Of a stretch of 64,000 nucleotides of DNA, positions 9,253-34,419 are shown piece after piece. Source of the DNA: Sphingopyxis lindanitolerans. Its GTDB lineage: Bacteria > Pseudomonadota > Alphaproteobacteria > Sphingomonadales > Sphingomonadaceae. Position numbers and translations under genes: made by a program. The number at the start of each line of letters is the position of its first letter. The stretch's first letter is position 1. The DNA lies in assembly GCF_002993885.1 (NCBI RefSeq), contig NZ_CM009578.1, positions 3,925,569 through 3,989,568 on the forward strand, given 5' to 3'. Below the pieces are notes generated by a model. That model was given only the letters and a program-made list of their open reading frames with translations, was not told where the DNA came from and did not search any database.

Positions 9253-10428
9253 TCAAAAACTCTTCGGCAGCTTCAGCACATGCGTCGCGACATGGCTCAA
9301 TATCAGGTTCGTGCTGATCGGCGCGACCTGGTAGAGCCGGGTCTCGCGGAACTTGCGTTCGATGTCATATTCCTCGGCGAAGCCGAAGCCGCCGTGGGTC
9401 TGGATGCACATATCGGCGGCATACCAGCTCGCCTCCGACGCGAGCATTTTTGCCATATTGGCTTCGGTGCCGCACGGCTCGCCCGCCTCGAACAGCGCCG
9501 CCGCCTGATCGACCATCGCCGCCGCCGCCGATAGCTGGACATGCGCGCGGGCGATCGGGAACTGAATGCCTTGATTTTCGCCGATCGGCCGCCCGAACAC
9601 TTCGCGTCCCGAAGCATAGGCGCTGGCGCGATCGATGAAGAAGCGTCCGTCGCCGATACATTCGCTCGCGATCAGGATGCGTTCGGCGTTCATGCCGTCG
9701 AGGATATATTTGAAACCCTTGCCTTCCTCGCCGATCAGGTTCGCGGCGGGGACGCGTAAATCGTCGAAGAACAGCTCGGTCGTCGCATGGTTGAGCATCG
9801 TGCGCACCGGCCGGATGGTCAGGCCGTTGCCCGCCGCCTCGCGCATGTCGACGAGCAGGACGCTCATGCCGTCGGATGATTTGGCGACCTGGTCGCGCGG
9901 GGTGGTGCGGACGAGCAGGACCATCAGGTCGCTATGTTCGGCGCGACTGATCCAGATTTTCTGTCCATTGACGACATAATCGTCGCCCCCCGCCTTCGCG
10001 AGGGCAGGCGCGCGGCGCGCGAAGGTCTTGATCCGCGTCGTGTCGGTTCCGCTCGTTGGCTCGGTGACGCCAAAGGCCTGGAGGCGCAGTTCGCCGCTGG
10101 CGATGCCGGGCAGATAGCGCTGCTTCTGCTCGGGCGACCCATGCTTCAGGATCGTGCCCATCGTGTACATCTGTGCGTGGCACGCGCCGCCGTTGCAGCC
10201 CGAGCGGTGAATCTCCTCGAGGATCGCGGTTGCCGCCGACAGGCCGAGCCCGGCCCCGCCATACTCTTCGGGGACGAGGACCGAGAGGAAGCCCGAGCTG
10301 GTCAGCGTGCGGACAAACTCGGTCGGATAGATGCGGTCGCGGTCGAGCGCCTGCCAATAGGAGCCGGGAAAATCGGCGCAGAGACGGCGGACCGATTCAC
10401 GGATTTCGAGGTGCGACGGTTCGAGCAT
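9253..10428 (-). CDS. Acyl-CoA dehydrogenase family protein
   Basis: 391 residues from ATG 10428, 1 bp after the stop of the upstream CoA-transferase gene and behind an AGGA. An in-frame ATG at 10455 would overlap that gene. FAD/substrate motifs are present: VPEEYGGAGLGLS near 70, FGVTEPTSGTDTTR near 140, and the C-terminal GGFGFAEEYDIERKFRETRL. The usual catalytic-Glu segment (Y-E-G-T) reads YQVAPIST, so the medium-chain-type base is not at its normal place. Expected role: alpha,beta-dehydrogenation of an acyl-CoA with electrons passed to ETF. It is the last gene of a five-gene minus-strand operon running from 15497. Confidence 0.88.
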   Translation of the reverse strand: MLEPSHLEIRESVRRLCADFPGSYWQALDRDRIYPTEFVRTLTSSGFLSVLVPEEYGGAGLGLSAATAILEEIHRSGCNGGACHAQMYTMGTILKHGSPEQKQRYLPGIASGELRLQAFGVTEPTSGTDTTRIKTFARRAPALAKAGGDDYVVNGQKIWISRAEHSDLMVLLVRTTPRDQVAKSSDGMSVLLVDMREAAGNGLTIRPVRTMLNHATTELFFDDLRVPAANLIGEEGKGFKYILDGMNAERILIASECIGDGRFFIDRASAYASGREVFGRPIGENQGIQFPIARAHVQLSAAAAMVDQAAALFEAGEPCGTEANMAKMLASEASWYAADMCIQTHGGFGFAEEYDIERKFRETRLYQVAPISTNLILSHVATHVLKLPKSF

Positions 10429-10429
10429 A

Positions 10430-11677
10430 TTATATCCTGACGAGGTGTGACCCATTTATTTGCCGCCACCGATTTTCGAGCATATTGCGGTGTGCAGGCG
10501 CTGCGATCGCAATGAGCGCGGCGGCACGTTCATCGACGGAGCGGCCCAGCAGTTCGGCGACCCCATATTCCGTGACGACCGTGTCAATGTCGCTGCGGGG
10601 GATCGATACGGTCGGGACGTCGAGGCGCGGTACGATGCGCGAAACTGTCCCTTCGCTGGCGGTGGCGCGTAGCGCCGTGATCGAGCGCCCCCCGCGCGAC
10701 TGGATAGCCGCACGCGAGAAGTCGGGCGCACCGCCTACGCCGCTGACCTGCGTCGCTCTCTGCCACTCCAGATTGACCTGTCCGAAGAGATCGACCTCCA
10801 ACGCGGAATTGATCGCGGTGAAAGCGTCGAGCCGGGCGAGGGCGACGCTGTCGTGACTTCGCGTTACCGGTACCATCTCAATCAGGTCAGAGTTCGCCAG
10901 CCAAGCATAAAAGCCCGCATCGCCGACCGCGATCCCCGTTTGATGCGGGCCGTCCGGGCGCAGCGCTCCGGCTTCGGTCAGCGCGCGGACTGCGGGCGTG
11001 ATCATCCCCGACGCGATGGTGAGATCGCGGTGTCCCGACAGAAAGCGCCATGTCGCGCCCGGAATGCCGCCAATTCCGCATTGTATCGCGGCGCAGTCGG
11101 GAATCAGCGCTGCGACCGACGCCGCGATTGCTTGGACAATCGGGTCGCTTATTTGATCATCCCCAGTGACGGGCGGTGCATCGATCTCGACGACAAGATC
11201 CGCATCGGCCAGCGTGAGGTACGGCGCACGTGCGATCGATGGCATGCGGGCGTTGACGACCAGCACGCGGAATTTCGCCCTTGGCCAGACGAGCGGGGCG
11301 AAATCGGCTGAAATACCAAGCGAACAGCGACCATCAGTTTGCGGCAACGCGGCATGTGCGATCGCGATATCGGGCACATAGTCTTCAGCGAGATAGCGCC
11401 CCGTCGCGCTGTAGCAGAGCGGCAGGATGCGCAGCCGTCCCGCCGCAGCCGACGCACTGAGCGCCGGCGACATCATGAAGGCGGTGAGCCGAGCATTGGA
11501 GTGAAGCGCGGCATAGTCGGTCCGATTGATTCCGGGAAGCAGCGCCGACGTGATCTCGACGCCCGCAAGGCTTCCAGGGTCGACCGCGAGCGCCCGCGCC
11601 AACGGCAGAATCTCGCCGGTGCCGCCGGGCAAATAGACGCGTCGACCCGGCGCGAAGCAATCGAGAAGGCGGTCCAT
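10430..11677 (-). CDS. Acetyl-CoA hydrolase / CoA-transferase family (4-hydroxybutyrate CoA-transferase-like)
   Basis: 415 residues from ATG 11677; a TTG two codons upstream directly abuts the previous stop and is the alternative start. The C-terminal domain shows the family's catalytic stretch FTAINSALEVDLFGQVN, in which the Glu forms the glutamyl-CoA thioester, followed by SGVGGAPDFSRAA and VVTEYGVAELLGRS. Such enzymes move CoA between acetate, butyrate or related acids, or hydrolyse the thioester. In this operon it may recycle CoA from a cleavage product of the thiolase pair. The N-terminal domain is more diverged (YLPGGTGE replaces the usual PxxxL-rich start), so the acyl specificity is open. 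Confidence 0.85.
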   Translation of the reverse strand: MDRLLDCFAPGRRVYLPGGTGEILPLARALAVDPGSLAGVEITSALLPGINRTDYAALHSNARLTAFMMSPALSASAAAGRLRILPLCYSATGRYLAEDYVPDIAIAHAALPQTDGRCSLGISADFAPLVWPRAKFRVLVVNARMPSIARAPYLTLADADLVVEIDAPPVTGDDQISDPIVQAIAASVAALIPDCAAIQCGIGGIPGATWRFLSGHRDLTIASGMITPAVRALTEAGALRPDGPHQTGIAVGDAGFYAWLANSDLIEMVPVTRSHDSVALARLDAFTAINSALEVDLFGQVNLEWQRATQVSGVGGAPDFSRAAIQSRGGRSITALRATASEGTVSRIVPRLDVPTVSIPRSDIDTVVTEYGVAELLGRSVDERAAALIAIAAPAHRNMLENRWRQINGSHLVRI

Positions 11678-11683
11678 CGGCAA

Positions 11684-12820
11684 CTAGAGCGTTCGAGCGA
11701 TCAGTTCGCGCATGATCTCGTTCGAACCGCCGGCAATTCGCATATAGCGCGAATCCGAATAGGTGCGCCCGATCAGATATTCGCGCGTGAAGCCGTATCC
11801 GCCGTGCATCTGGACGCAATCGTCGAGCAGCCGCATCAAAAGGTCAGTCGCCTGAAATTTGGCGACCGCGGCGGCATTCGCGTCGAGTTTTCCTTCGACC
11901 ACCAGTTCGATACAGCGGTCGACAAAGACACGCATTACCTGCGTTTGTGCGTGCCAGTCGGCGAGCTTGAAGCGCGTATGCTGCATGTCGAACAGCGCCT
12001 GGCCGAACGCCTGACGGTCACGCGTATAATCGGTCGTCCAGCGGATTGCATGTTCGCACAATGCCGCCGCACGGATCGCGATGCTTGTTCGCTCCCATGC
12101 CAATTCCTGCATCAAACAGATGAAGCCGCGGTCGACTTCGCCAAGCACATTGGTGGCGGGCACGCGGACGTCGTCGAAGAAAAGTTCGGCAGTATCCTGC
12201 GCGTGCAGGCCAATCTTGTCGAGCTTGCGGCCGCGCTTGAAACCTGGCCGGTCGCCCTCGACCAGGAGCAGGGTGACGCCCTTGGCGCCCGCCCCCTGCG
12301 TCGTCCGCGCGGCGACAACGATCAGGTCGGCGAGATGGCCGTTCGAGATGAAGGTCTTTTGCCCGTTGATGATATAGTCGTCACCGTCGCGCACCGCCGA
12401 AGTGCGGAGTGCGGCAAGATCGGATCCGCCGCTCGGTTCGGTCATCGCCACTGCACCAATCACCTCGCCGCGCGCCATGGGCGGCAGCCAGCGGAGTTTC
12501 TGTTCTTCGGTCCCGTAATGGAGCAGATAAGGCGCGACGATTTCGGAATGCAGCGGGAAATTGGGTCCGCTGAGGTTGTTGCGCGCCAGTTCCTCGATCA
12601 GGATCGTCGGATACAGCCGGTCAAGCCCTGCGCCGCCATATTGTTCGGGGATCGTCATGCACAACAGCGACTCCTTGCCTGCGGCAAGCCAGGCGCTGCG
12701 GTCGACGATACCCTGTTCCTCCCAGCGCGCATGGTGCGGCGCAATCTCACGTTCGAGGAAGCGCCGCACCGATTCGCGGAAGATATTATGCTCGTCGCTG
12801 AAAAGCGTCCGCTCGATCAT
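11684..12820 (-). CDS. Acyl-CoA dehydrogenase, long-chain (LCAD)-like
   Basis: 378 residues. MTIPEQYGGAGLDRL, AMTEPSGGSDLAALR and INGQKTFISNG are the conserved FAD-domain motifs. The C-terminus RIAGGSNEIMRELIAR matches the long-chain enzyme pattern in which the MCAD-type Glu is absent, and the base is instead expected in the QELAWER helix, which is present (LMQELAWERTSI). Predicted to oxidise an acyl-CoA to the 2-enoyl-CoA. It ends 6 bp before the CoA-transferase start and begins 11 bp after the thiolase stop, so it is tightly co-transcribed. Confidence 0.92.
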   Translation of the reverse strand: MIERTLFSDEHNIFRESVRRFLEREIAPHHARWEEQGIVDRSAWLAAGKESLLCMTIPEQYGGAGLDRLYPTILIEELARNNLSGPNFPLHSEIVAPYLLHYGTEEQKLRWLPPMARGEVIGAVAMTEPSGGSDLAALRTSAVRDGDDYIINGQKTFISNGHLADLIVVAARTTQGAGAKGVTLLLVEGDRPGFKRGRKLDKIGLHAQDTAELFFDDVRVPATNVLGEVDRGFICLMQELAWERTSIAIRAAALCEHAIRWTTDYTRDRQAFGQALFDMQHTRFKLADWHAQTQVMRVFVDRCIELVVEGKLDANAAAVAKFQATDLLMRLLDDCVQMHGGYGFTREYLIGRTYSDSRYMRIAGGSNEIMRELIARTL

Positions 12821-12831: not shown

Positions 12832-14031
12832 TCAGTTCATGCCGACGATGGCGACGGCGCAGACATTCAGGTTCGGGAAGCCGCCAAGATTGTGCGACAG
12901 CGCATTGACGGGCGGGGTCGCCCGCTGACGTTCGCCCGCGCGTCCCAGCAACTGGAGGTAGTTTTCATAGATCATCCGGATGCCTGACGCGCCGATCGGG
13001 TGGCCAAAGCATTTCAGCCCGCCGTCGATCTGGCAGGGAATGGCACCATCGGCGTCAAACTTGCCGTCCATGACATCATAGACTGCGCGGCCCTCGTCGC
13101 TGAGGCCGAGGTCTTCCATCGTCACCAGTTCGGTAATCGAGAAGCAATCGTGGACCTCGGTCAGACTGATGTCCTTGCGCGGGTCGGTGATGCCTGCTTC
13201 CTTATAGGCGCGCGCCGCGGCGATACGCGTGGTGTGAAAGTAGCTTCCATCCCATCCCGATCCTTCGGCTTCCCAGCCGTTCGATGCCGCAACCTGCAGC
13301 GCCTTGACGGTGACAAGGTCGGTCTTGCCCAGTCGCCGGGCGATTTCGGGTGTGGTCACGATTACGCATGCCGCGCCATCGGAGACACCGCAACAATCGA
13401 ACAGCCCGAGCGGTTCGGCGATCATCGGCGCATTCATCGCCTGTTCCTCGGTGATCGGCTTGCGCAAGTGCGCCTTGGGATTTTTCGCGCCGTTCGCGTG
13501 GCTCTTGACCGAAACATGGGCGATAGCGCGTTTCAGATCGTCACGCTTCACACCGTGCTTGGCGCCATAGGCCGAGGCGATCTGGGCGAATTGCCCAGGT
13601 GCAGTGCTGTTCGCCAGCGTGGCGTCGGGGAATGCGCCCCGAGGCCGCGCTGGCAGACCTCCATAGCCCGTGTCCTTGAGCTTCTCGACCCCCATCGCCA
13701 GCGCGATGTCGCAGGCGCCGCTTGCCACGGCGTAGACCGCGCCGCGGAAGGATTCGGTCCCCGATGCACAATAATTCTCGACCTTGGTGCACGGAATATT
13801 CGGTAGCCGCAGCGCCACCGACAGCGGTACTCCTGACGGTCCGATACTGGCCGTGTCGAGGCCAACACCCAGCCAGGCGGCGTCGATCTGCGTCACGTCG
13901 ATACCCGCATCCTCGATGGCTTCCAGAAACGCTTCGACCATCAGGCCACTTGCGTCCATGTCCCACCGCTCGCCGAAGCGCGAGCAACCCATGCCCAGAA
14001 TAGCAACCCTGTCCTTGATGCCGCTTGCCAT
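12832..14031 (-). CDS. Thiolase family protein (SCP-x/acetyl-CoA acetyltransferase type)
   Basis: 399 residues. The nucleophile Cys is in ENYCASGTESFRGAVYA near residue 90, the acid/base His in CFGHPIGASGIRM near 345, and a further His in LSHNLGGFPNLNV near 380, where biosynthetic thiolases would have a Cys-Gly-Gly loop. The EVHDCFSITELVTMEDLG segment is typical of SCP2/archaeal-type thiolases. These act on branched or bulky beta-ketoacyl-CoAs. The neighbour upstream fuses an HMG-CoA-synthase-like fold to a DUF35/OB domain, the kind of partner known from archaeal thiolase/HMGCS complexes and from the Ltp2/ChsH2 steroid aldolases. A physical complex is therefore likely, but inferred. Confidence 0.9.
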   Translation of the reverse strand: MASGIKDRVAILGMGCSRFGERWDMDASGLMVEAFLEAIEDAGIDVTQIDAAWLGVGLDTASIGPSGVPLSVALRLPNIPCTKVENYCASGTESFRGAVYAVASGACDIALAMGVEKLKDTGYGGLPARPRGAFPDATLANSTAPGQFAQIASAYGAKHGVKRDDLKRAIAHVSVKSHANGAKNPKAHLRKPITEEQAMNAPMIAEPLGLFDCCGVSDGAACVIVTTPEIARRLGKTDLVTVKALQVAASNGWEAEGSGWDGSYFHTTRIAAARAYKEAGITDPRKDISLTEVHDCFSITELVTMEDLGLSDEGRAVYDVMDGKFDADGAIPCQIDGGLKCFGHPIGASGIRMIYENYLQLLGRAGERQRATPPVNALSHNLGGFPNLNVCAVAIVGMN

Positions 14032-14042: not shown

Positions 14043-15497
14043 TTATGTTGCGGCCCGGTAATCGGGCACCGCTTTCCAGAAATAATGTTTGAAACCGCGC
14101 TCGACGTCGTGGCGCTTGAGGCGGAACATCATCCGCATCGGCTGTCCGATCTCGAGCGTGTCGGGATCGACATCGGTGAAATCGACCGTCATCCGCCCGC
14201 CACCCTCGAATTCGATGAGGCCGTAACAGCCAGGTGGATCGGGTGTGTAGACGAGGCTGTCGGCGGTGAAGCTTGCGATGCGGGCGCGGCGCTCGGCGAG
14301 CGGATATTCTTCCTGCGTGCCGATGGCGCGTTCATTTTGTGCCACCGAAATGTCCGACTTCGGAAATTGTATGGTGCCGGTTTTCGTGCAGCGCCCACCG
14401 ACGAGTGAAAGCAGACTTCGCCGGTGACGATAAAGCATTGAAGGCGGCGTGCGCTGATCTGCTTCGGCTCGCATGCCGCCATCAAGGGTCAACGCGCCCG
14501 TAAAGTGCAAATGGCGGATATAGCTGTCTTCGGCCTTTCGGCGGTCGAGCCAGCCCGACACGCCCATGTTCGCGGCGCGCGCGCCGATCGCGTCGGTCAC
14601 GCGGAACAGCAGGACATCGCATCCCTGTCCGAACGACGCCACGAGCAGGAGTTCGCTAGGCGCCGCTTTTTCAAGCGCGTGTGCGAGCAGGATCAGCGGC
14701 TGCGCGCAGCCCGCCGTTCCGAGCCGATCCTGCAGATTGTCGCCGACTGCATCTGCCCCGATACCGGCGGCCTTGGCGACGCTTTTGTCGATTCCGCGGA
14801 TCGGCGCCGCCATGATGAAGCGATCGATGGCGTCGGCGGAGACGTTAAATTTCGCCAGCGCCTCGGCAATCGCTGTCGGCATGATCTTCGCATAACCTTC
14901 GTCGCGAACCCAACGGCCTTCCCATTCATAATCCAAGCAACGGTCCGATGCGCGAAAATGATCGGCGAAATCGACGGTATGGCTATGATGTCCCACCAAT
15001 TCGGCAAGACCAGCGCCTGGGCCGACGAGGATCGCCGCCGCGGCGTCCCCATAGGTCAGTTCGGCTTCCGACGCGACCTTCGCCTTGCGCCGTTCGGAGG
15101 CGAGGCAAAGCACTTCGCTTCCGCCTGCGGCACTTTCCAGCGCGGCAATCAATGCCGATGTTCCCGCCCGCTGCGATCCGGTGACGTCGAGCGCGCCGAC
15201 ATCATCGGACAGGTTCAGCGCTTCCTTGACGATACCCGCATTCTGCCGGTCGGCATAGGGAAGGCTGGTCGATGCAAGGATCAGTTTGCGAATCACCGAC
15301 CGCCGGTCTTCGGGCAGGCAATCGCGCGCCGCCTCCACCGCCATCGTGACAGTATCTTCATCCCAGCCGGCGATTGCGCGTTCGCCGCGGGCGTGTGCGC
15401 TCAGCCCGGCATTGAACCACGATAGAGCCGCAACTGCTGCTTCGCGCTGCAAGCGCCGACGCGGCACATAGCCCCCGAAAGCGATAATCGATGCCAT
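14043..15497 (-). CDS. HMG-CoA synthase/KAS III-like domain fused to a DUF35 OB-fold domain
   Basis: 484 residues from ATG 15497, with GAGGAGTG at the right distance; the frame's earlier start at 15518 lacks a ribosome-binding site. Residues 1-300 follow the HMGCS/KAS III fold (IIAFGGYVPRRRL, ILASTSLPYADRQNAGIV, AELTYGDAAAAILVG, and a Gly-rich LLLVASFGQGCDVLLFR end). Where the catalytic Cys is expected (A-C-x-A-G-T) it reads GSQRAGTSAL, so Gln replaces Cys. Residues about 340-484 resemble the DUF35 rubredoxin-like/OB-fold protein (GGRCTKTGTIQFPKSDI, DPPGCYGLIEFEGGGRM), but the zinc ribbon keeps only one Cys. First gene of the minus-strand operon, divergent from the IclR gene. Confidence 0.82.
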   Translation of the reverse strand: MASIIAFGGYVPRRRLQREAAVAALSWFNAGLSAHARGERAIAGWDEDTVTMAVEAARDCLPEDRRSVIRKLILASTSLPYADRQNAGIVKEALNLSDDVGALDVTGSQRAGTSALIAALESAAGGSEVLCLASERRKAKVASEAELTYGDAAAAILVGPGAGLAELVGHHSHTVDFADHFRASDRCLDYEWEGRWVRDEGYAKIMPTAIAEALAKFNVSADAIDRFIMAAPIRGIDKSVAKAAGIGADAVGDNLQDRLGTAGCAQPLILLAHALEKAAPSELLLVASFGQGCDVLLFRVTDAIGARAANMGVSGWLDRRKAEDSYIRHLHFTGALTLDGGMRAEADQRTPPSMLYRHRRSLLSLVGGRCTKTGTIQFPKSDISVAQNERAIGTQEEYPLAERRARIASFTADSLVYTPDPPGCYGLIEFEGGGRMTVDFTDVDPDTLEIGQPMRMMFRLKRHDVERGFKHYFWKAVPDYRAAT

Positions 15498-27410: not shown

Positions 27411-29540
27411 ATGTGCTACCATCGTTCGTTGATGCTTGCCCTCGCGCTATCTGCGAGCCCGCAAGCGATGGCGCAAAGCGCCGGCGCCGCTACCGAGCCG
27501 GTCGACACCGCAAGCCAGTCCAGCGGGGTACTGGGCGATATCGTGGTGACCGCGCAGCGGCGCAGCGAGCGCCTGCAGGACGTGCCGATCGCGGTCAGCG
27601 TTATCAGCGGTAATGATGCGCTGGATAAGGGCGTCACCAGCACGGTCGACCTGACCTCCGCCGTGCCGGGACTGGTCGTCAACTACAACGCGAACGTCGG
27701 CAATCTTTATCTGCGCGGTGTGGGGTCGAACCTGCCCAATCCGACCGACGAGCAGCCCACCGCGACATATGTCGACGGCGTCTATATTCCCTTCCCGCAA
27801 TCGAACTTCTTCACCTTCTATGATGTCGAACGGATCGAAGTGCTAAAAGGGCCGCAAGGCACGCTGTTCGGTCGCAATGCGACAGGCGGCGTCGTGCAGA
27901 TCATTACAAAGGACCCGTCGCAGGAAACCGAACTCGATGCCTCGCTCACCTATGGCAATTACAACACAGTCAGCTTGCAGGCATACGGAACCACCGGTCT
28001 CGGCGACAAGGCCGCAATCGGTGTATCGGCGCAATATGACAACCAGGGAAAGGGCTTTGGCCGTAACCTCACTCTCAACGAACCGGCTTTCCAGCGCGCA
28101 ATCGACAGCTATACGGTGCGCGCAAAGCTGCTCGTCACGCCGACCGACACCACGAAAATCCTGGTAACCGCCGACTATTCAAACCTCCTGAACTCGTCGG
28201 GATACCAGCTGATGCCTGGGGTCATAGGCGGCGATGGCGTGTCGACCTATCCAGGCAAGTTCAATACGCTCAACGACCTCCCGACGGGCAACCCGCTCGA
28301 AATGTATGGCGTATCATTCAAGCTGAACCAGGAAATCGGCAATCTCGATTTCACGGCGATCAGCGGCTATCGCGAGTTGACGGGAACTTTCTTCAGCGAT
28401 TCCGATTCAACGCCGCAGCCGCTGAGCCAGCTTGAGCTGCGCGAAAAGGGGCGTGCCTTTTCTCAGGAGCTCCAACTCGCGGGATCGTCGGATCGGTTCA
28501 ACTGGATCGTGGGCCTTTATTATTTCGACATTTTCGGACGCGGCCAGCTCTTCAATCGCGCGACGCCAATCATCGCCCCCCTACCCCTCATCGGGTCGCA
28601 ACAGGAAGGGCGTTCGATCGCCGGTTTTGCGCAGGGAACGCTCGAACTGGGCGGTGGTACGAGCGTTACCGCCGGCGCGCGCTACACCAAGGAATGGCAG
28701 GATTTCTATTATCCGGCAGGCAATCTCCGGTCGAGCCAGAGCTTTGCCAAACCCTCGTGGCGGGTAGCGATCGACCACAAGTTCAGCGACGATCTGATGG
28801 TCTACGTTTCGTATAACAACAGTTTCAAGGGCGGCGGTTACAACCTGATATCGCCGACCTTGCTGTCGGGAACCGTCAACAATTTCCAGCCCGAAGTTTT
28901 GCAGTCTTTTGAAGGCGGATTGAAGGCGCAGTTGTTCGATGGTCGGATGCGGCTCAATATCGCTGCCTTCCACTATCTCTATGACGATATCCAGACCGCG
29001 CTGGTCATCCCGGGGGGTGTCGTAACGCTGAATGCCGCCAAGGCGCATACGACGGGTCTCGAAATCGACTTCTCGGCGAAGCCCACCGACTTCCTTGAAT
29101 TGTCGGGTGCCTTTTCCGCGATGCGTGGAAAATATGACCGCTATCCGAACGCGCCCTCGATTGGCGCCGACGCGGTGCAACGGACGGTCGATGCGTCGGG
29201 GAACGACCTGCTTGTTCTTCCCGACTATACTGCGACGGGGACGGCAACATTCAATATACCGCTGTCCAGCGGGACCCTTCGGCCGTCCGCAACCATATCT
29301 TATAATGACGGCTTTTTCTGGTTTGCCGACAACCGGTTGCGGAGCCCGGCCTATACGCTGATCAACGCTCAACTGGGGTGGACGTCCGATAATGAGCAGT
29401 TTGGCATCCGGTTATGGGCCAGGAATCTGACGAACAAATATTATTACGTCGCGCGGCTGTCGCGCGTGCGCTTTGGCGACTCCCAGGTTCCAGCGGCACC
29501 GCGGACCTATGGTATCACGCTGACCGCCAAGTTCAGATAG
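27411..29540 (+). CDS. TonB-dependent outer-membrane receptor
   Basis: 709 residues from ATG 27411 (GGGGAGAGAGGCT upstream), which gives a signal peptide ending ASPQAMAQ; the frame's upstream extension is not needed. The plug domain is clear (IVVTAQRRSERLQDVPIAVS, NLYLRGVGSNLPNPTDEQPT, VERIEVLKGPQGTLFGRNAT, GGVVQIITKDP), as is the beta-barrel ending in the typical aromatic C-terminal residue (GITLTAKFR with Phe). IVVTAQRR is the sphingomonad/Caulobacter-type receptor box. It should import the cluster's hydrophobic substrate across the outer membrane. It is followed by an MFS permease for the inner membrane. Confidence 0.95.
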   Translation: MCYHRSLMLALALSASPQAMAQSAGAATEPVDTASQSSGVLGDIVVTAQRRSERLQDVPIAVSVISGNDALDKGVTSTVDLTSAVPGLVVNYNANVGNLYLRGVGSNLPNPTDEQPTATYVDGVYIPFPQSNFFTFYDVERIEVLKGPQGTLFGRNATGGVVQIITKDPSQETELDASLTYGNYNTVSLQAYGTTGLGDKAAIGVSAQYDNQGKGFGRNLTLNEPAFQRAIDSYTVRAKLLVTPTDTTKILVTADYSNLLNSSGYQLMPGVIGGDGVSTYPGKFNTLNDLPTGNPLEMYGVSFKLNQEIGNLDFTAISGYRELTGTFFSDSDSTPQPLSQLELREKGRAFSQELQLAGSSDRFNWIVGLYYFDIFGRGQLFNRATPIIAPLPLIGSQQEGRSIAGFAQGTLELGGGTSVTAGARYTKEWQDFYYPAGNLRSSQSFAKPSWRVAIDHKFSDDLMVYVSYNNSFKGGGYNLISPTLLSGTVNNFQPEVLQSFEGGLKAQLFDGRMRLNIAAFHYLYDDIQTALVIPGGVVTLNAAKAHTTGLEIDFSAKPTDFLELSGAFSAMRGKYDRYPNAPSIGADAVQRTVDASGNDLLVLPDYTATGTATFNIPLSSGTLRPSATISYNDGFFWFADNRLRSPAYTLINAQLGWTSDNEQFGIRLWARNLTNKYYYVARLSRVRFGDSQVPAAPRTYGITLTAKFR

Positions 29541-29643
29541 TGTCGGTGCGGCGTGCGGACCGAATAGACGGGTTGGTGCGGATGGTGGCGGCGTGCGCTC
29601 CCATTCCGCGCCGGCCAACCATTTCCGAGTAGGGTGGTGGTCA

Positions 29644-30891
29644 ATGCTGAAGAGCGACGATCCAGGCGCGGTTCGGCGTGAATGGAAACAGAATTGGGGG
29701 ACGCTACTCGCCTGCTTTGCCGGAACTGCTGCCTCGATCACCCATATTCCCACCTTTGGCATCCTTCTCCCTTCCATTCACCGGGAATATGGATGGTCGG
29801 TTTCGGAGATCACCGCGGGAATGGTGATTCTGGCCACTGTCAGCCTCATAGCTTCCGGCTTTGTTGGCGCCGCCGTGGATCGTTTTGGTTCACGGCGGAT
29901 CGGACTGGCCGGGCTGTTTCTCTATTATGGGGCATTCGCGCTACTGGCTACCACTGGCCCTTCGATTATCAACTGGTGGTTATTGTGGCTGCTGCTCGGC
30001 GTCGGCTTCAGTTGCACCACGACAACGGTATGGGCTCCTGCGGTTGCGAGCCGGTTCCACGCCAGCCGTGGGTTGGCGATTGCCGTGATGCTGTGCGGGA
30101 CCGGCGTGTCGATGGCGGTCATGCCTCTTGTTGCGACCGTCCTACTCGAAAATTATGGCTGGCGCGGCGCGCTGGTGGGCTGCTCGGCGATCGTCGCAGC
30201 CTCTTCGATACCGCTTGTTGCTCTTTTCCTTCGCGACCGTCCGGATAACAGGTCAGCAGCCTGCGCCGATCAATCGCTAGATCGTGTCGCGCATAGGGGG
30301 CTTACTGTACGTGAGGCGGTGCGATCGTGGATTTATATCCGGATCGCGATCAGTGCCCTGGCCTTTACCATCGCCTCGCTGGCACTCGTCGTTCATTTCG
30401 TTCCCATCCTCCGCGAAGGCGGCATGGCGCCGGAGGCCGCCGCGGCTGCGGCTGGGGCGATCGGCCTGGCCGCGATCGTCGGTCGGCTCACTGCGGGATC
30501 GTTGCTCGACCATATACGCGTCCGCTATATTGCGGTGGTCTGTTTCGGCCTCCCGTCGGTGGCTTGCGGCCTGTTGCTGGCCGATCCCGGACCCGTTGCG
30601 GCGATCGGGATCGGCATATTGATCGGTTTCTCCAGCGGATCGGAACTGGATATCGTCGCCTATGCCGCGACCCGTTATTTCGGACTGCGCAATATCAGTA
30701 CCATCTACGGGATTCTCGTCGGCATGATCACATTTGCCGCCGGCGTGGGACCATTTCTATCCAGCGTCATGTTCGACATTTTTGGCGGCTATGACCATTT
30801 GATTCTGTTCGTGATCCCTTTCTTCCTCTTGGGCTCGGTGCTGATGGGGTCATTGCCACCCTATCCGCGCTGGGATGGCGTGCGCGCATGA
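29644..30891 (+). CDS. MFS transporter
   Basis: 415 residues from ATG 29644. Twelve hydrophobic segments are visible. The MFS loop 2-3 signature is present as GAAVDRFGSRRIGLAGLFLY and the loop 8-9 counterpart as GSLLDHIRVRYI. The family is closest in pattern to monocarboxylate/oxalate-formate-type permeases (LLGVGFSCTTTTVWAPAVAS). It lies 103 bp after the TonB receptor and before the flavoprotein operon, so uptake of the same organic acid or its precursor is likely. Direction and substrate are not visible in the sequence. Confidence 0.92.
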   Translation: MLKSDDPGAVRREWKQNWGTLLACFAGTAASITHIPTFGILLPSIHREYGWSVSEITAGMVILATVSLIASGFVGAAVDRFGSRRIGLAGLFLYYGAFALLATTGPSIINWWLLWLLLGVGFSCTTTTVWAPAVASRFHASRGLAIAVMLCGTGVSMAVMPLVATVLLENYGWRGALVGCSAIVAASSIPLVALFLRDRPDNRSAACADQSLDRVAHRGLTVREAVRSWIYIRIAISALAFTIASLALVVHFVPILREGGMAPEAAAAAAGAIGLAAIVGRLTAGSLLDHIRVRYIAVVCFGLPSVACGLLLADPGPVAAIGIGILIGFSSGSELDIVAYAATRYFGLRNISTIYGILVGMITFAAGVGPFLSSVMFDIFGGYDHLILFVIPFFLLGSVLMGSLPPYPRWDGVRA

Positions 30892-30925: not shown

Positions 30926-30943
30926 TTGTTCCAAATGGTACAT
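30926..30943. promoter_or_regulatory. Operator candidate (site T4) upstream of the flavoprotein operon
   Basis: TTGTTCCAAATGGTACAT differs from the amidohydrolase site (19431) at only three of 18 positions and is nearly symmetrical. It ends 97 bp before ATG 31041, in the 149-bp gap after the MFS gene. Confidence 0.6.
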
Positions 30944-31040: not shown

Positions 31041-32273
31041 ATGTCGCTTTCAAATAGCATAAGGGAATCGCGGGCCGGCGCAGCCGCTGGAGTCGCGCCG
31101 GTATTCCGGGGCCCGGAAGCGTTGCTCGATGCACTCCGCCCGATAACAAAGCAGATCGCCGAGCGTGCCGAAGAGATCGAAACCGCGCGTACGTTTCCAG
31201 CGGATTTATATCGGCAGATCGATGCGACCGGCTTTTTCCGGATGGCGCTTCATCCGAAATATGGTGGTGCGGGATATCGCTTGCAGGATGCGGTCGCGAT
31301 CATCGAGGAGATCGGCCGCGCCGATGGATCGACGGCATGGAGCATGATGCTGGGAAGCGAGGTCCACATCGCCTGGACACGCTTTCCCGACGAGTTTTTG
31401 CAGGAGGTATATTCCGGTCTGACACCGCCAATGTCACGCGCCGCGCTGACTCCGCGCGGCAAGATGACGAAGGTCGATGGCGGCTATCTTCTCGATGGCC
31501 AATGGCCACTAGCGAGCGGGTCATACCCGACCCAGTGGTTTCTCGTGAACAGCCTTGTCACCGACGCCGAGGGCCGTCCGGTTGCGAACGCAGATGGCAT
31601 TATCGAACCCAAGATCGCGGCGGTTCCTACATCCGAAATTGAAATTCTCGATACATGGCATTCGATGGGCCTCCGCTCGACCGAAAGCCACGATATCCGG
31701 CTCAACAATTATTTCGTCTCCGAAAGCCGCACGGCTTATGCCAGTATCACCCGTCCTGAAGCGGGGCCGCTTGGCCGGATTGCTTTGAACGCGGCGCTCG
31801 GCACCTTCCACCTCGGCGTCGTCTTGGGGATTGCCCGCGGCATGCTCGACGAGTTGGCGGATTCGGCCAAGTTGCGCAAGCCAATCTATACCCCCACGCG
31901 TTTCCTCGCCGAAAGCCCGCTGTTCCAGAAACGATATGCCGCGATGGAAATTCGGCTGGCGGCCGCACGGGCCTTCGTCCTCAGTGAGGCGGAGGGATTA
32001 TGGGACCGCGCGAACAGGGGCGAGGCGATAACAACGCCGATGAACGTTCGTCATCGTTCAATGGTCGCATACGTCCACCAGGAATGCCTGGCGATCGCCA
32101 ACGAGGTTTTCTCCGACGCCGGGACGGCGTCACTTTATGCCGGCTCGTCGATGCAGCGGCGCTTTCGCGACATGCGCTCCGCCTGCCAGCATATCATCGC
32201 CGGGACCGACGTTTTTCAGCCGTACGGCGCCATTTTGCTCGATCAGGAGATCGAGTCGCACATCCGAGTTTAG
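31041..32273 (+). CDS. Acyl-CoA dehydrogenase-fold flavoprotein, possible monooxygenase (HsaA/HpaB-like group)
   Basis: 410 residues from ATG 31041, GGAGAGACGAC upstream. The N-terminal LDALRPITKQIAERAEEIET, YRQIDATGFFRMALHPKYGG, and EEIGRADGSTAWSMMLGSEV are typical of the two-component flavin-dependent hydroxylases that share the acyl-CoA dehydrogenase fold (HsaA, XiaF/C2-type). TWHSMGLRSTESHDIRLNNY is their G-(L/M)-R-x-T-x-S segment. A separate flavin reductase would be needed; none is visible in the window. The alternative is an ordinary acyl-CoA dehydrogenase, but the catalytic YEGT segment is absent (DVFQPYGAILL). Followed by SRPBCC and esterase genes in one operon. Confidence 0.8.
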   Translation: MSLSNSIRESRAGAAAGVAPVFRGPEALLDALRPITKQIAERAEEIETARTFPADLYRQIDATGFFRMALHPKYGGAGYRLQDAVAIIEEIGRADGSTAWSMMLGSEVHIAWTRFPDEFLQEVYSGLTPPMSRAALTPRGKMTKVDGGYLLDGQWPLASGSYPTQWFLVNSLVTDAEGRPVANADGIIEPKIAAVPTSEIEILDTWHSMGLRSTESHDIRLNNYFVSESRTAYASITRPEAGPLGRIALNAALGTFHLGVVLGIARGMLDELADSAKLRKPIYTPTRFLAESPLFQKRYAAMEIRLAAARAFVLSEAEGLWDRANRGEAITTPMNVRHRSMVAYVHQECLAIANEVFSDAGTASLYAGSSMQRRFRDMRSACQHIIAGTDVFQPYGAILLDQEIESHIRV

Positions 32274-32295: not shown

Positions 32296-32838
32296 TTGAG
32301 CGACAACAGCACTTCGGTCACCGCGGCGTGGATTTCCTCGGCGCCGCTCGACACACTTTTCGAACTTGTCCGCGATCAGTCGACATGGGTCAGTTGGACC
32401 GACATCCAGTCGCTGGAAATAGAAAGCGTCGGCGATGCAGGGCCGAATAGCGTCGGCGCGGTTCGCAAAATCATCGGGGCCAGCGGCACGGAAATCCGCG
32501 AGCGCATTGCCGAGGTCGCGGAGGGCAAGCGCGTCCGTTATGAATTGCTGAGCGGGCTTCCGGTCGTCAAATATGAGGGCCTGACCGAATTCCAGGCCGT
32601 ACCCGACGGCCGAACGCTCGTCCGCTGGACCTCGACCTTTGCGGCTGAAACGCCTGAACTCACCGCAGAACTTTCGGTGTTTCTCGGACGCCTCGTTCGC
32701 AAGATGGTGCGCCAGGTCGCGCTGGCAGCGCAAATTCCTGCCCTGCTCAATCGTCCGGTGCGCAAGCCGCACAGTCCGCTCTCCAGCGGCAAGCATGTCA
32801 TCATGCATGACCTGCCACGATATCAGCGGCTCTATTGA
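32296..32838 (+). CDS. SRPBCC-fold protein (START-like)
   Basis: 180 residues. No ATG is available in frame; TTG 32296 is the start because a perfect AGGAGG lies 7 bp upstream, 22 bp after the flavoprotein stop. SSAPLDTLFELVRDQSTWVS then NSVGAVRKIIGASGTEIRER and YELLSGLPVVKYEGLTEFQA give the helix-grip pattern with a long C-terminal helix (LGRLVRKMVRQVALAAQI). Such proteins bind hydrophobic ligands, and some are cyclases. A role in presenting or processing the hydroxylated intermediate is possible but unproven. Unrelated in detail to the SRPBCC protein at 7169. Confidence 0.82.
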   Translation: MSDNSTSVTAAWISSAPLDTLFELVRDQSTWVSWTDIQSLEIESVGDAGPNSVGAVRKIIGASGTEIRERIAEVAEGKRVRYELLSGLPVVKYEGLTEFQAVPDGRTLVRWTSTFAAETPELTAELSVFLGRLVRKMVRQVALAAQIPALLNRPVRKPHSPLSSGKHVIMHDLPRYQRLY

Positions 32839-32879: not shown

Positions 32880-33806
32880 ATGCCCCTCCACCCCGAAGCG
32901 GTCGCGTTTCTTGAAAAGATGGCCGACGTGCCCGATCCGACCGACGAAAATCTGGAATTATTCCGCGGCGGCGCCGCGACGCTGATCGCCACGGGTGAAC
33001 GGGCTGATCTTTGTGACGTCATCGACCGGACGATTGCTGGGGGCGATAGGCAGGACATGGGGGTCCGCATCTATGTCCCGCGCGAGGAAGGACCCTTGCC
33101 GGTTATCCTTTGGGTGCATGGCGGGTCGTTCGTTCGCGGCACGCTCGACATGTTCGACGCCGGACGCCGCGATTTCGCCCATCAGAGCAAATGCGTGATT
33201 GTGGCCGTCGACCAGCGCCTGTCGCCCGAAGCGCAGTTCCCCGCGCCGCTGGAGGATGCCTACGCCGCGCTTATATGGACAGCGGGGCATATGAAGGAAT
33301 TCAAGGGCGATCCCGCATTGCTCGGCGTCGGTGGCGAAAGTAGCGGCGGTAGCCCGGCGGCCGCATTGCCATTCCTCGCGCACGAACGCGGTGGACCAAA
33401 GATCGCGTTCCAGGTTTTGGCGAACCCGCTGCTTGATGCGACGCTGTCGAGCCCGTCCGTCGATGAACTCGCCACTGGATATTTCCTCACCAAGGCGCAG
33501 CTCGACTGGTGCTATGAAAAATATGCACCGGGCGAAAAACGAAAATCGCCGCTCGTCTCACCCGCCCTGCAGGCCGATTTCTCGACTACCGTGCCGGCGG
33601 CGATCGTTACGACGGAATATGACCCCGTGCGCGACGATGGCGAGCGCTTCGCCGAAAGTCTGCGTCGAGCGAATGTTCCCGTCTACCTCGAACGGATCCT
33701 AGGCCATGTGCACCATTTCGGGGGCGCTGACCGCACGCCGGCACTCTTGCGGCTTCTCAATGCGCTGCTGAGCGATCTGCGCGCCGTGCAAGCGAAAGGA
33801 GCCTAG
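32880..33806 (+). CDS. Alpha/beta hydrolase fold-3 esterase/lipase (HSL/Aes family)
   Basis: 308 residues from ATG 32880. WVHGGSFVRGTL is the HGG oxyanion motif, and GVGGESSGGSPAAAL the nucleophile elbow (Ser in G-E-S-S-G, where most members have G-D-S-A-G). EYDPVRDDGERFAESLRR supplies the acid Asp and GHVHHFGGADR the His. Hormone-sensitive-lipase-type esterases hydrolyse short acyl esters and lactones. In this operon it could open an ester or lactone formed by oxygenation. It starts 41 bp after the SRPBCC gene and ends 1 bp before the next start. Confidence 0.92.
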   Translation: MPLHPEAVAFLEKMADVPDPTDENLELFRGGAATLIATGERADLCDVIDRTIAGGDRQDMGVRIYVPREEGPLPVILWVHGGSFVRGTLDMFDAGRRDFAHQSKCVIVAVDQRLSPEAQFPAPLEDAYAALIWTAGHMKEFKGDPALLGVGGESSGGSPAAALPFLAHERGGPKIAFQVLANPLLDATLSSPSVDELATGYFLTKAQLDWCYEKYAPGEKRKSPLVSPALQADFSTTVPAAIVTTEYDPVRDDGERFAESLRRANVPVYLERILGHVHHFGGADRTPALLRLLNALLSDLRAVQAKGA

Positions 33807-33807
33807 A

Positions 33808-34419
33808 ATGCTGCTCGTCGCGATCTGTGCCGATAGCGCCGCAGCAGAGGCGCTTCGCCCCGTACTTCTCGCCGCGCATGGTCAATATCTGCTATCGCTG
33901 GAGTCTCTGCGTTTCTCGGCCCCGCTCGCTCGTCGCGACGACGCGCTCTTTTCGGGTGAGGGGATCGAAAGCAGCGTCATCATCCTTGAAGGAAGCGCCT
34001 GGCCACAGCTGGTCGAAACGCTGTTGGCCGACCCCTATGCAGTGGGCGGCGTATGGGCAAAGATCGGCCTTTATGAAATGCCGCACCCTCCTGTGCTGTC
34101 GCCCGGAGAGTTTCTCGTCGATTTGACGCGCGACGGTCGGTGGTACTTGAAGCTGTTTTCTGGGTCCTCCGTCGATACCGGAGCGCTGAAGCTGGTTTAT
34201 CGGGATGGCTGGGCTGGAACGACCACCTCTGCTTCGTCCACTAAAGTTGTGGGTCCGCTGGAGGTTGGTGGATGGAGCGGGATGAGTATTGCCGCTGCGG
34301 CGGACATGTCGACCGCTTTAAATTCGGTATCCGCCGCCGACGTGGCCTGTGTGACAGGCGGCGTATCATCGACGCTTGCCGTGCCCGTCGCTGCCGGCAG
34401 TTGGACAAAGCGTCCTTAA
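33808..34419 (+). CDS. YciI-like domain protein with unusual C-terminal tail
   Basis: 203 residues from ATG 33808, directly behind the esterase stop. Residues 1-95 follow the YciI/YCII fold pattern (dimeric alpha-beta barrel): a leading beta strand, a His in LAAHGQYLLSLESLRFSAPL, a Gly-rich turn, and LADPYAVGGVWAKIGLYEM with the conserved D-P-Y. Residues 96-203 (starting PVLSPGEFLVDLTRDGRWYL) do not belong to that fold and include Ala/Ser-rich low-complexity sequence; they may result from the nearby rearrangement or be a true extension. Last gene of the cluster before a MITE-like element and an IS91 remnant. Confidence 0.6.
   Translation: MLLVAICADSAAAEALRPVLLAAHGQYLLSLESLRFSAPLARRDDALFSGEGIESSVIILEGSAWPQLVETLLADPYAVGGVWAKIGLYEMPHPPVLSPGEFLVDLTRDGRWYLKLFSGSSVDTGALKLVYRDGWAGTTTSASSTKVVGPLEVGGWSGMSIAAAADMSTALNSVSAADVACVTGGVSSTLAVPVAAGSWTKRP

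What the first reader, a model, noticed from the sequence alone, without database searches (positions are those of the whole stretch)
9253..34419. Large self-contained catabolic cluster for an unidentified hydrophobic or branched acid
Entry (TonB receptor, MFS), activation (acyl-CoA ligase), epimerisation (racemase-like CaiB), several acyl-CoA dehydrogenases including a likely heteromeric pair, MFE-2-like SDR/MaoC, thiolase with HMGCS/DUF35 partner, CoA-transferase, atypical crotonase, amidohydrolase/DUF59, flavoprotein hydroxylase, SRPBCC and esterase all lie together with two local regulators. The combination recalls steroid side-chain, isoprenoid or terpenoid degradation but lacks the Rieske (KshA), extradiol dioxygenase and meta-cleavage genes of the known steroid cluster. 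The substrate is not evident and the pathway may be undescribed.
Basis: inference. Interest (0 to 1): 0.75.

Follow-up and report, generated by a model that had tools for sequence, protein, structure and literature searches.

The report
Branched-acid degradation island in Sphingopyxis
A Sphingopyxis bacterium carries an uncommon block of 22 genes that looks built to take up and break down a bulky acid with a methyl branch next to its acid group; the exact compound is unknown, and one key gene looks broken in this genome.

Summary
The gene list is real: a ~25 kb catabolic island in a Sphingopyxis genome. The amidohydrolase orthologue is in 3 of 80 Sphingopyxis genomes; synteny from ~10.5 to ~34.1 kb exists in PET50 and MAG-119. 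New points: (1) the CaiB protein is an α-methylacyl-CoA racemase by sequence, catalytic triad kept, so the substrate or an intermediate is probably α-methyl-branched; (2) the thiolase has the Cys/HDCF/GHP set of SCP2 thiolases, not the Sal/Ltp2 aldolase motifs, and its fused HMGCS-like/DUF35 partner lacks the HMGCS cysteine (0 of 79 relatives); (3) two conserved palindromes suggest co-regulation: ATTC-N8-GAAT, linked to the IclR gene, at β-oxidation promoters, and TTGTnCCAnnTGGTACAA, probably TetR's, before the amidohydrolase/DUF59 and monooxygenase operons; (4) the large subunit of the heteromeric acyl-CoA dehydrogenase is frameshifted here, open in both relatives. Best reading: branched-chain β-oxidation of a bulky, perhaps terpenoid, acid plus a separately regulated module for its cyclic or oxygenated part. 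Substrate, reactions and regulator-operator pairing are inferred. Ten paper searches found no described cluster of this make-up. New variant of a known kind.

The parts
9253..10455 (-). ACAD1, acyl-CoA dehydrogenase; overlaps the CoA-transferase gene, so probably co-transcribed here; no orthologue in the PET50 or MAG-119 cluster; about 70% identical relatives in 9 of 80 loci, for example the IclR-SDR-MaoC-HMGCS/DUF35-thiolase-ACAD operon of S. panaciterrae
   Evidence: Pfam; relatives
10430..11683 (-). CoAT1, CoA-transferase of the 4-hydroxybutyrate/butyryl-CoA:acetate type
   Evidence: Pfam PF13336; PDB 3d3u E 3e-48
11684..12820 (-). ACAD2, acyl-CoA dehydrogenase
   Evidence: Pfam; 92-93% in PET50/MAG-119
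12832..14031 (-). SCP2-type thiolase with Cys (NYCASGT), HDCF and GHPxG motifs
   Evidence: NF004810 over its cut-off; motifs kept in 77 of 77 (Cys) and 75 of 75 covered (HDCF, GHPxG) relatives
14043..15497 (-). HMGCS-like domain fused to a DUF35 (OB_ChsH2_C) domain; Gln at the HMGCS cysteine column; probable non-catalytic partner of the thiolase (start taken at the Met of MASIIAFGG in the ORF 14043-15518)
   Evidence: Pfam; PhlA, HMGCS and DUF35 chains of thiolase complexes; 0 Cys of 79
15542..15577 (.). two ATTC-N8-GAAT-type operator sites, 20 bp apart (matrix scores 19.2 and 14.6)
15658..15673 (.). operator site ATTC-N8-GAAT (matrix score 23.8), conserved in PET50 and MAG-119
15787..16572 (+). 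IclR-family regulator
   Evidence: Pfam; 86% in PET50/MAG-119
16628..16683 (.). three ATTC-N8-GAAT-type sites, 20 bp apart (matrix scores 19.0, 18.3, 12.5), before the SDR gene
16702..17613 (+). SDR, MFE-2-like 3-hydroxyacyl-CoA dehydrogenase (function inferred)
   Evidence: Pfam; start
17610..18482 (+). MaoC protein with MFE-2 hydratase-2 N-terminal domain; no match in the MAG-119 cluster
   Evidence: Pfam
18618..19238 (+). TetR-family regulator
   Evidence: Pfam; 69-71% in relatives
19431..19448 (.). operator TTGTTCCATTTGGTACAA upstream of the amidohydrolase gene
19508..20593 (+). AMH, non-canonical Amidohydro_2 protein (first His of the HxH motif absent; beta-8 Asp kept here but not in 6 of the 8 aligned members)
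   Evidence: Pfam (on ORF 19472-20593); alignment of 8 members
20590..21015 (+). DUF59 (PaaD/SufT-like) protein, overlapping AMH
   Evidence: Pfam PF01883; pair kept in related loci
21114..22210 (-). ACAD-L, large subunit of a heteromeric acyl-CoA dehydrogenase, frameshifted: N-half 21632-22210, C-half 21114-21887; open in PET50 and MAG-119
22250..23305 (-). ACAD-S, small subunit of the heteromeric acyl-CoA dehydrogenase
   Evidence: Pfam; PDB hits weak: ordinary ACADs first (1e-8), heteromeric chains 4x28_D and 6wy8_A lower (about 1e-5)
23405..23440 (.). two weak IclR-type sites, 20 bp apart (matrix scores 8.1 and 9.8, within chance level); the PET50 and MAG-119 counterparts score 23.2 and 8.8, 22.8 and 13.0
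23579..24706 (+). α-methylacyl-CoA racemase (CaiB/family III fold)
   Evidence: MCR 8rmw/1x74 E about 1e-114, H126/D156/E241 kept
24755..26314 (+). acyl-CoA ligase; next best match in the genome by E-value 32% identical
   Evidence: Pfam
26334..27185 (-). crotonase lacking both hydratase glutamates
   Evidence: Pfam; alignment with six other crotonases, two of which have both
27336..29540 (+). TonB-dependent receptor
   Evidence: Pfam; 87% in relatives
29593..30891 (+). MFS transporter
   Evidence: Pfam; 77-80% in relatives
30926..30943 (.). operator TTGTTCCAAATGGTACAT upstream of the monooxygenase gene
31041..32273 (+). HsaA/HPAH-C2-like flavin-dependent monooxygenase (oxygenase component)
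   Evidence: NF045629 138 bits, below its cut-off of 450; Rv3094c, XiaF, C2-HPAH, HsaA structures
32296..32838 (+). SRPBCC (Polyketide_cyc2) protein
   Evidence: Pfam (on ORF 32137-32838); 55-79% in relatives
32880..33806 (+). Abhydrolase_3 esterase
   Evidence: Pfam; 87-88% in relatives
33808..34419 (+). uncharacterised protein, weakly similar (23%, E 0.005) to a YCII protein of the duplicate PET50 module

Best explanation
A probably acquired, inducible catabolic island for a bulky, hydrophobic, α-methyl-branched carboxylic acid (most likely terpenoid or isoprenoid in type). Proposed flow: the TonB receptor and MFS carrier import it; the acyl-CoA ligase activates it; the α-methylacyl-CoA racemase sets the configuration needed; the heteromeric ACAD (L/S) dehydrogenates; MaoC hydrates and the SDR oxidises (MFE-2-type, probably R-specific); the SCP2-type thiolase, held by a non-catalytic HMGCS-like/DUF35 partner, cleaves off propionyl-CoA; CoAT1 moves CoA between a product and another acid. 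This core answers to the local IclR regulator through ATTC-N8-GAAT operators. A second unit (amidohydrolase+DUF59; HsaA-like monooxygenase+SRPBCC+esterase+YCII-like) probably answers to the local TetR regulator through TTGTnCCAnnTGGTACAA and processes the cyclic or oxygenated part of the molecule. In this genome the pathway may be impaired, because the large ACAD subunit is frameshifted. Shown by sequence: families, racemase and thiolase residues, synteny, motif conservation, frameshift. Inferred: every reaction, which regulator binds which motif, the order of steps, and the substrate.
For: Racemase identity with catalytic triad kept (residue roles recalled). Racemase of this type beside thiolase/HMGCS-DUF35 genes in 10 of 80 loci (two of them the close relatives) and in Variovorax L129; full triad in 10 of these 11, E to D in one. 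Thiolase Cys in 77 of 77 relatives, contrasted with Sal/Ltp2 motifs. Partner resembles PhlA and the archaeal HMGCS/DUF35 chains; PhlA also lacks the HMGCS Cys (passages of PMC6392133). Two adjacent, complementary ACAD genes; the large one's second to fourth PDB hits are heteromeric steroid ACADs. Synteny in two further Sphingopyxis assemblies; much of the core in Variovorax VAI-C and partly in S. paeninsulae. TetR-type operator: two sites in the window (4 strand matches against 0.03 expected); exactly two perfect sites per whole genome, both in the cluster, in 3 of 3 genomes. IclR-type operator: 30 of 38 sites in 80 loci fall in 2.6% of the bases (24 of 32 without the two close relatives); 14 of 16 loci with an IclR gene have it against 3 of 64 without; a matrix made without the window and its two close relatives ranks the IclR intergenic sites first.
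Against: No enzyme was assayed, and I know of no substrate for any syntenic relative. The heteromeric ACAD large subunit is broken here; its best PDB hit is an ACAD of unstated kind and the small subunit's best hits are ordinary ACADs. MAG-119 lacks a MaoC match and PET50 has frame breaks in CoAT1, ligase, crotonase and the last ORF, possibly sequencing error in a Nanopore-only assembly (PMC9872611, whole text). The HsaA-like protein is far below the HsaA equivalog cut-off, and no flavin reductase family was hit in the cluster. In the window itself the IclR-type sites at the ACAD-S/racemase promoter are at chance level (8.1 and 9.8). ATTC-N8-GAAT alone is only mildly enriched in the window (4 against 1.14; 4 of 100 shuffles reach it). 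With 2 mismatches the TetR-type pattern gives 6, 8 and 8 strand matches per genome, against 3, 3 and 3 for the reversed control. Related loci are not independent events.
Confidence: 0.5

Rival explanations
1. Steroid or bile-acid side-chain degradation: the island handles the C5-C8 side chain of a sterol-like compound and the ring is degraded elsewhere.
For: Heteromeric steroid ACADs (Tcur3483, ChsE4-ChsE5) among the top PDB hits of the large ACAD, racemase of the kind used on the C25-methyl in cholesterol breakdown (recalled), MFE-2-like SDR/MaoC and thiolase, HsaA-like oxygenase.
Against: No Rieske or extradiol family among the cluster ORFs scanned; no Ltp2/Sal-type aldolase motif; HsaA equivalog cut-off missed, 138 of 450 bits; the bile-acid review passages report no Sal1, FadA5, Sad or Sal2/Ltp2 homologues in Sphingobium Chol11 and related strains (PMC8399759). 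Apart from the Rieske family, whole-genome steroid markers were not searched.
Confidence: 0.1
2. Breakdown of an α-methyl polyketide acid such as Adda from microcystins, known in other Sphingopyxis (recalled).
For: α-Methyl toolkit fits; the genome has an MlrC-family gene beside a beta-lactamase-like hydrolase, an S9 peptidase, TonB and MFS genes.
Against: The MlrC family is absent from both other cluster-bearing genomes (one of them only 87% complete) and present in 10 of 80 Sphingopyxis, so it does not track the cluster; no mlrA was recognised beside it (by eye; not searched by profile).
Confidence: 0.05
3. Xenobiotic branched or 2-arylpropionic acids (ibuprofen- or naphthenic-like).
For: The PDB title of MCR names 2-arylpropionyl-CoA; sphingomonads degrade such drugs (recalled).
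Against: A 2-arylpropionate has no β-methylene for the SDR/thiolase steps (chemistry, own knowledge); no ring-hydroxylating dioxygenase family among the cluster ORFs scanned.
Confidence: 0.1
4. A decaying remnant: the island no longer works as a pathway in this strain.
For: Frameshift in ACAD-L, an FAA hydrolase at 4379-5279 that looks split over two frames, a short IS110-family transposase ORF at the left edge, low codon-model scores of the island genes.
Against: The other cluster genes are open reading frames; operators are conserved; a single frameshift can be a sequencing error.
Confidence: 0.25

Closest known systems
Peroxisomal-type branched-chain β-oxidation (AMACR, MFE-2, SCPx; recalled)
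   Same: Same enzyme set: α-methylacyl-CoA racemase, MFE-2-like dehydrogenase and hydratase, SCP2-type thiolase
   Different: Separate bacterial genes; ACAD instead of acyl-CoA oxidase; DUF35/HMGCS-like partner; an additional oxygenase/amidohydrolase module
Bacterial steroid side-chain degradation (ChsE heteromeric ACADs, Shy/Sal, ChsH/Ltp2; PMC8399759 and PMC12329534, passages)
   Same: Paired ACAD genes; MaoC hydratase; thiolase-fold enzyme associated with DUF35
   Different: Thiolase motifs, no aldolase motif; no steroid ring genes among the cluster ORFs scanned
Thiolase/HMGCS/DUF35 complexes (archaeal 6ESQ; PhlABC; BbsAB thiolase)
   Same: Homologous thiolase; HMGCS-like domain without its Cys as in PhlA; DUF35 domain
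   Different: HMGCS-like and DUF35 are fused in one chain; catabolic setting; substrate unknown
IclR-SDR-MaoC-HMGCS/DUF35-thiolase-ACAD operon of Sphingopyxis panaciterrae (L044) and the own-genome copy at C1:869787-874215
   Same: Six homologous genes in L044 (IclR 32%, the others 52-75% identical) and four in the own-genome copy (51-76%)
   Different: No racemase, ligase, transporter or amidohydrolase/oxygenase relative of the cluster found beside it by BLAST of called genes within about 20 kb; the own-genome copy shows no IclR gene and no strong IclR-type site
Cluster of Sphingopyxis sp. PET50 (compost isolate) and MAG-119
   Same: Syntenic from CoAT1 to the last ORF
   Different: No ACAD1; a second amidohydrolase/DUF59/esterase/SRPBCC/HsaA/ligase module about 22 kb to the left

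Membership tests
α-Methylacyl-CoA racemase (AMACR/MCR) | Closer to racemases than to family III CoA-transferases | tested here: met
   MCR E 1.4e-114 against 9e-36 for the best annotated CoA-transferase
α-Methylacyl-CoA racemase (AMACR/MCR) | Catalytic H126, D156, E241 (roles recalled) | tested here: met
   All three at the aligned positions; of 11 relatives at or above 50% identity 10 keep the full triad and 1 has E to D; of 14 weaker CaiB hits none shows it, 5 of these alignments not covering all three positions
α-Methylacyl-CoA racemase (AMACR/MCR) | Racemase activity | not testable with these tools
   -
SCP2-type thiolase | Nucleophilic Cys, HDCF and GHPxG motifs | tested here: met
Steroid aldolase (Sal/Ltp2) | YDCY/YDHF motif; no thiolase nucleophile (Gly in Sal) | tested here: not met
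   HDCF and Cys present
HMG-CoA synthase | Catalytic Cys | tested here: not met
   Gln in the window; 0 Cys of 79 relatives
Multicomponent acyltransferase PhlABC | PhlC substrate residues and C-acyltransfer activity | not tested
   Only homology and the missing HMGCS Cys were compared
Heteromeric (ChsE-type) acyl-CoA dehydrogenase | Two adjacent ACAD genes with complementary conserved parts | tested here: met
   Adjacent genes; the large one lacks the C-terminal H-G-G/A region that the small one has (by eye)
Heteromeric (ChsE-type) acyl-CoA dehydrogenase | Closest solved structures are heteromeric ACADs | tested here: inconclusive
   Large: 8hk0 first (1.2e-39, kind not stated), then Tcur3483 and 4x28. 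Small: ordinary ACADs first, 4x28_D and 6wy8_A lower
Heteromeric (ChsE-type) acyl-CoA dehydrogenase | Both subunits intact in this genome | tested here: not met
   Large subunit frameshifted
HsaA (3-HSA hydroxylase) | Equivalog cut-off 450 bits of NF045629 | tested here: not met
   138.4 bits
Steroid catabolic cluster | KshA Rieske oxygenase and extradiol dioxygenase in the cluster | tested here: not met
   No Rieske or extradiol family among the cluster ORFs scanned; eight Rieske matches elsewhere in the genome, the nearest about 25 kb left of the cluster
Canonical Amidohydro_2 metal enzyme | HxH motif and beta-8 Asp (motif recalled, placed by eye) | tested here: not met
   First His absent in 8 of 8 aligned members; Asp kept in 2 of 8, the window and its PET50 orthologue
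Microcystin/Adda (mlr) pathway | Co-occurrence with the MlrC family | tested here: not met
   1 of 3 cluster genomes has it; 10 of 80 in the genus

The most novel reading that the evidence does not exclude
The island encodes an undescribed aerobic pathway for a cyclic terpenoid-type α-methyl acid, in which a rare amidohydrolase with a remodelled metal site works as an obligate pair with its DUF59 partner on a product of an HsaA-like oxygenase, and in which the TetR and IclR regulons separate head-group processing from branched-chain β-oxidation.
Probability: 0.25. Interest if true: 0.6.

Novelty: new variant of a known kind. Interest (0 to 1): 0.42.

Why it matters
It turns a vague list of acyl-CoA genes into a testable proposal: the racemase names the likely substrate class (α-methyl-branched), the thiolase motifs argue against the steroid-aldolase route, and two candidate operators give direct handles for finding the inducer. 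The amidohydrolase/DUF59 pair occurs from sphingomonads to rhizobia, Rhodococcus and haloarchaea; two narrow paper searches on the word pair found no function. The ATTC-N8-GAAT motif and the fused HMGCS-like/DUF35 partner recur in many proteobacterial clusters, so solving one may help annotate others.

Tried and rejected
Steroid reading: the thiolase motifs argue against the aldolase route. Adda/microcystin reading: MlrC family checked in the own genome and in 80 genus genomes; it does not track the cluster. Friedel-Crafts acyltransferase reading: only homology and the missing HMGCS Cys are shared with PhlA; not pursued. PET degradation: the PET50 paper (PMC9872611, whole text) reports MHETase-like genes and nothing on this cluster. 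Geosmin reading: one paper search, nothing useful. Paper searches with no directly relevant hit. One plasmid stretch (RAC02) carried no annotation and was read by ORF calling. Shared 14-mers across three or more window promoters: none; palindromes and footprints gave the operators. The four plasmid searches gave distant relatives only (below 60% identity). My gene caller is a simple script and missed or split some genes (for example the SRPBCC gene of PET50, found), so absences from it are weak. A structure of the amidohydrolase was wanted but not obtained.

Full report
Where it is. The window lies at C1:3925569-3989568 of a 4.37 Mb, 3-contig genome. Its closest named relatives for the HMGCS/DUF35 gene are Sphingopyxis sp. 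PET50 and Sphingopyxis MAG-119 (86 and 85%), and G122, a same-genus genome, matches the plasmid record of Sphingopyxis sp. FD7, so the host is taken to be a Sphingopyxis. The region from about 4 to 44 kb has lower G+C (0.58-0.64 per 2 kb) than most of the rest of the window (0.63-0.69), and its genes score low in my codon model. An IS110-family transposase ORF lies at 3204-3818. The picture is that of an acquired island.

Observation. Against NCBIfam (20 ORFs given; the esterase, the last ORF and the N-half of the large ACAD were not), the thiolase is the only protein over a curated cut-off among the rows shown (NF004810, 677 bits against 403; for long hit lists only the best 25 rows are shown). 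This fits enzymes without a described function. The large ACAD of the pair is in two frames: an N-part (177 residues) and a C-part (199 residues) of the PET50 orthologue align in different frames of the window, whereas the MAG-119 orthologue aligns over residues 1-381 in one frame.

Conservation. Nucleotide synteny runs from 10474 to about 34070 in PET50 and MAG-119, main blocks at about 77-79%. In the genus the amidohydrolase orthologue (94% or more) is in 3 of 80 genomes; 14 of 80 have any hit at E 0.001, most of them remote. In 199 family genomes 31 have any hit, but only 6, the own genome included, have hits below 1e-40. Across 398 genomes of the phylum 5, the own genome included, have a hit at 1e-20. 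PET50 and MAG-119 carry a second module of ligase, esterase, DUF59, amidohydrolase, SRPBCC and HsaA-like genes about 22 kb to the left of the cluster, which suggests that these six genes form a unit. The core (SDR, MaoC, HMGCS/DUF35, thiolase) is widespread: of 80 loci 78 have the thiolase at 60% or more, 47 the SDR at 40% or more, 43 the MaoC at 40% or more, 10 the racemase at 50% or more (contig ends cut many loci). Variovorax paradoxus VAI-C has ACAD-L, ACAD-S, racemase, a crotonase, SDR, MaoC, HMGCS/DUF35, thiolase and ACAD2 relatives within about 13 kb; its further CoA transferase is CaiB-like (28%) and not CoAT1. Sphingomonas paeninsulae has ACAD-L/S, IclR, SDR, MaoC, HMGCS/DUF35 and thiolase relatives together.

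Racemase. The CaiB-family protein aligns with M. tuberculosis MCR at 386 bits, against 127 bits for the best annotated CoA-transferase. Positions H126, D156 and E241 of MCR are all kept (counted on the alignment; their catalytic role is recalled). Of eleven relatives of at least 50% identity ten keep the full triad and one has E to D; none of 14 weaker CaiB hits shows it, though 5 of those alignments do not cover all three positions. This is the best evidence on substrate: an α-methyl-branched acyl-CoA.

Thiolase complex. The thiolase matches an acetyl-CoA acetyltransferase (7yvy), the archaeal acetoacetyl-CoA thiolase, the BbsB thiolase and SCP2 thiolases, in this order. The nucleophile Cys is kept in 77 of 77 relatives and HDCF and GHPxG in 75 of 75 covered (3 of 80 loci gave no thiolase hit). 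Passages of PMC12329534 state that Sal and Ltp2 aldolases have YDCY and YDHF and that Sal has Gly in place of the thiolase Cys. By motif the window protein is thus a thiolase. Its partner is one chain with an HMGCS-like and a DUF35 domain. The HMGCS Cys column holds Gln in 58, Leu in 11, Arg in 5, Met in 3, Gly in 1 and Ala in 1 of 79 relatives, never Cys (1 of 80 gave no residue). Passages of PMC6392133 report that PhlA also lacks it. I infer a scaffold or CoA-binding role. The same genome holds a second copy of these four genes at C1:869787-874215, next to a P450, an SDR and a 600-residue FAD oxidoreductase.

Dehydrogenase pair. The PET50 large subunit matches 8hk0 (an acyl-CoA dehydrogenase of unstated kind, 1.2e-39), then Tcur3483 (two chains) and 4x28 (ChsE4-ChsE5; names recalled and from PMC8399759 passages), then ordinary ACADs from 1e-25. 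The window's small subunit gives weak hits, ordinary ACADs first (1e-8), 4x28_D and 6wy8_A lower (about 1e-5). The two genes are complementary in conserved parts (by eye). A heteromeric enzyme is likely, not proven.

Regulation. (a) TTGTnCCAnnTGGTACAA lies upstream of the amidohydrolase (19431) and the monooxygenase (30926). In the window the pattern TTGTNCCATATGGTACAA with up to 3 mismatches gives 2 sites (4 strand matches) against 0.03 expected. In the three whole genomes the degenerate pattern TTGTNCCANNTGGTACAW has exactly two perfect sites each, always these two. With up to 2 mismatches there are 6, 8 and 8 strand matches, against 3, 3 and 3 for the reversed control; among them are one site before the duplicate HsaA module of PET50 and of MAG-119 and a CACGTG group that resembles parS (recalled). 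The pattern was drawn from PET50/MAG-119 sites and loosened to fit the window, so the whole-genome uniqueness is the test, not the fit. The TetR gene is the neighbour, and I assign the motif to it by position. (b) ATTC-N8-GAAT occurs at 15562, 15658, 16648 and 30911 of the window (4 against 1.14 expected, 4 of 100 shuffles reach it). In 80 related loci 30 of 38 sites lie in the 300 bp upstream of the SDR or HMGCS gene, which is 37,048 of 1,413,179 bases; 14 of 16 loci with an IclR homologue have such a site against 3 of 64 without. Six of the 30 are in the two close relatives L016 and L017; without them the counts are 24 of 32 sites and 12 of 14 loci. A matrix from 24 sites that leaves out the window, L016 and L017 ranks 15658, 15542, 16628 and 16648 highest in the window; 7 window sites score over 12 against 0.875 in Markov sequence, and several are spaced 20 bp. 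It also finds strong sites at the ACAD-S/racemase promoter in PET50 (23.2) and MAG-119 (22.8), but the window's own (9.8 and 8.1) are at chance level. The window site at 30911 is not conserved, and the second copy of the core in this genome has no strong site. No binding was measured.

Second module. The HsaA-like protein resembles Rv3094c, XiaF, C2-HPAH and HsaA and keeps the RD...H end motif seen in the four distinct proteins aligned there; it fails the HsaA cut-off. The amidohydrolase lacks the first His of HxH in 8 of 8 aligned members, and the beta-8 Asp is kept in 2 of 8, the window and its PET50 orthologue (motif recalled and placed by eye). A DUF59 gene lies next to it in each closer relative that I examined: window, two each in PET50 and MAG-119, FD7, RAC02, Rhodococcus, Bradyrhizobium, Natrinema, and five further genome loci (L006-L009, L146), 15 of 15; four remote relatives (L147-L150, 26-29%) show none. 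Of the 37 plasmid records with a match I looked at five. In FD7, Rhodococcus and TomMM15 plasmids the amidohydrolase pair or the HsaA-like gene sits near flavin oxidoreductases (FAD- or LLM-type, a cyclohexanone monooxygenase in TomMM15), ligases and SDRs, which hints at alicyclic ketones. The crotonase lacks both hydratase glutamates; of six other crotonases aligned with it two have both (positions recalled).

Reading. I read the island as branched-chain β-oxidation plus a head-group module. The α-methyl step is well supported; a bulky substrate rests on the likely heteromeric ACAD and the TonB receptor; a terpenoid source is a guess. The frameshift means the strain may not use it. Paper searches found no described cluster of this make-up, but the library is partial and the searches few (passages used come from PMC6392133, PMC12329534 and PMC8399759, the whole text from PMC9872611, the rest are listings only).

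Noticed in passing
window -31375 to -14973 (L001/L002; C1:3894193-3910595): Another catabolic gene group with 2-oxoacid dehydrogenase-like subunits, P450, TonB receptor, ligase, two acyl-CoA dehydrogenases and a Rieske oxygenase; apart from the Rieske match these names come from reading the translated ORFs by eye.
   Followed up: no
C1:146041-155259 (L123): MlrC-family gene beside a beta-lactamase-like hydrolase, an S9 peptidase, MFS and TonB receptor genes: a possible peptide-degradation locus.
   Followed up: partly
window 4379-5279: FAA hydrolase gene that looks split over two frames, a possible second sign of decay in the island.
   Followed up: partly
C1:865545-874215 (L141): Second copy of SDR-MaoC-HMGCS/DUF35-thiolase next to a P450, an SDR and a 600-residue FAD oxidoreductase.
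   Followed up: partly
C1:1606327-1652326 (L124-L126): Dense group of ring-hydroxylating dioxygenase and meta-cleavage-like genes (names by eye); four of the genome's eight Rieske alpha matches lie here.
   Followed up: no
L016-L095 and window 15542-16683: ATTC-N8-GAAT motif, often as pairs 20-22 bp apart, shared by IclR-linked SDR/MaoC/HMGCS-DUF35/thiolase operons across Proteobacteria.
   Followed up: yes
L102, L103, L104, L108, L109: Amidohydrolase/DUF59 pair in Sphingopyxis, rhizobia, Rhodococcus and haloarchaea with conserved but non-canonical motifs; function unknown.
   Followed up: partly
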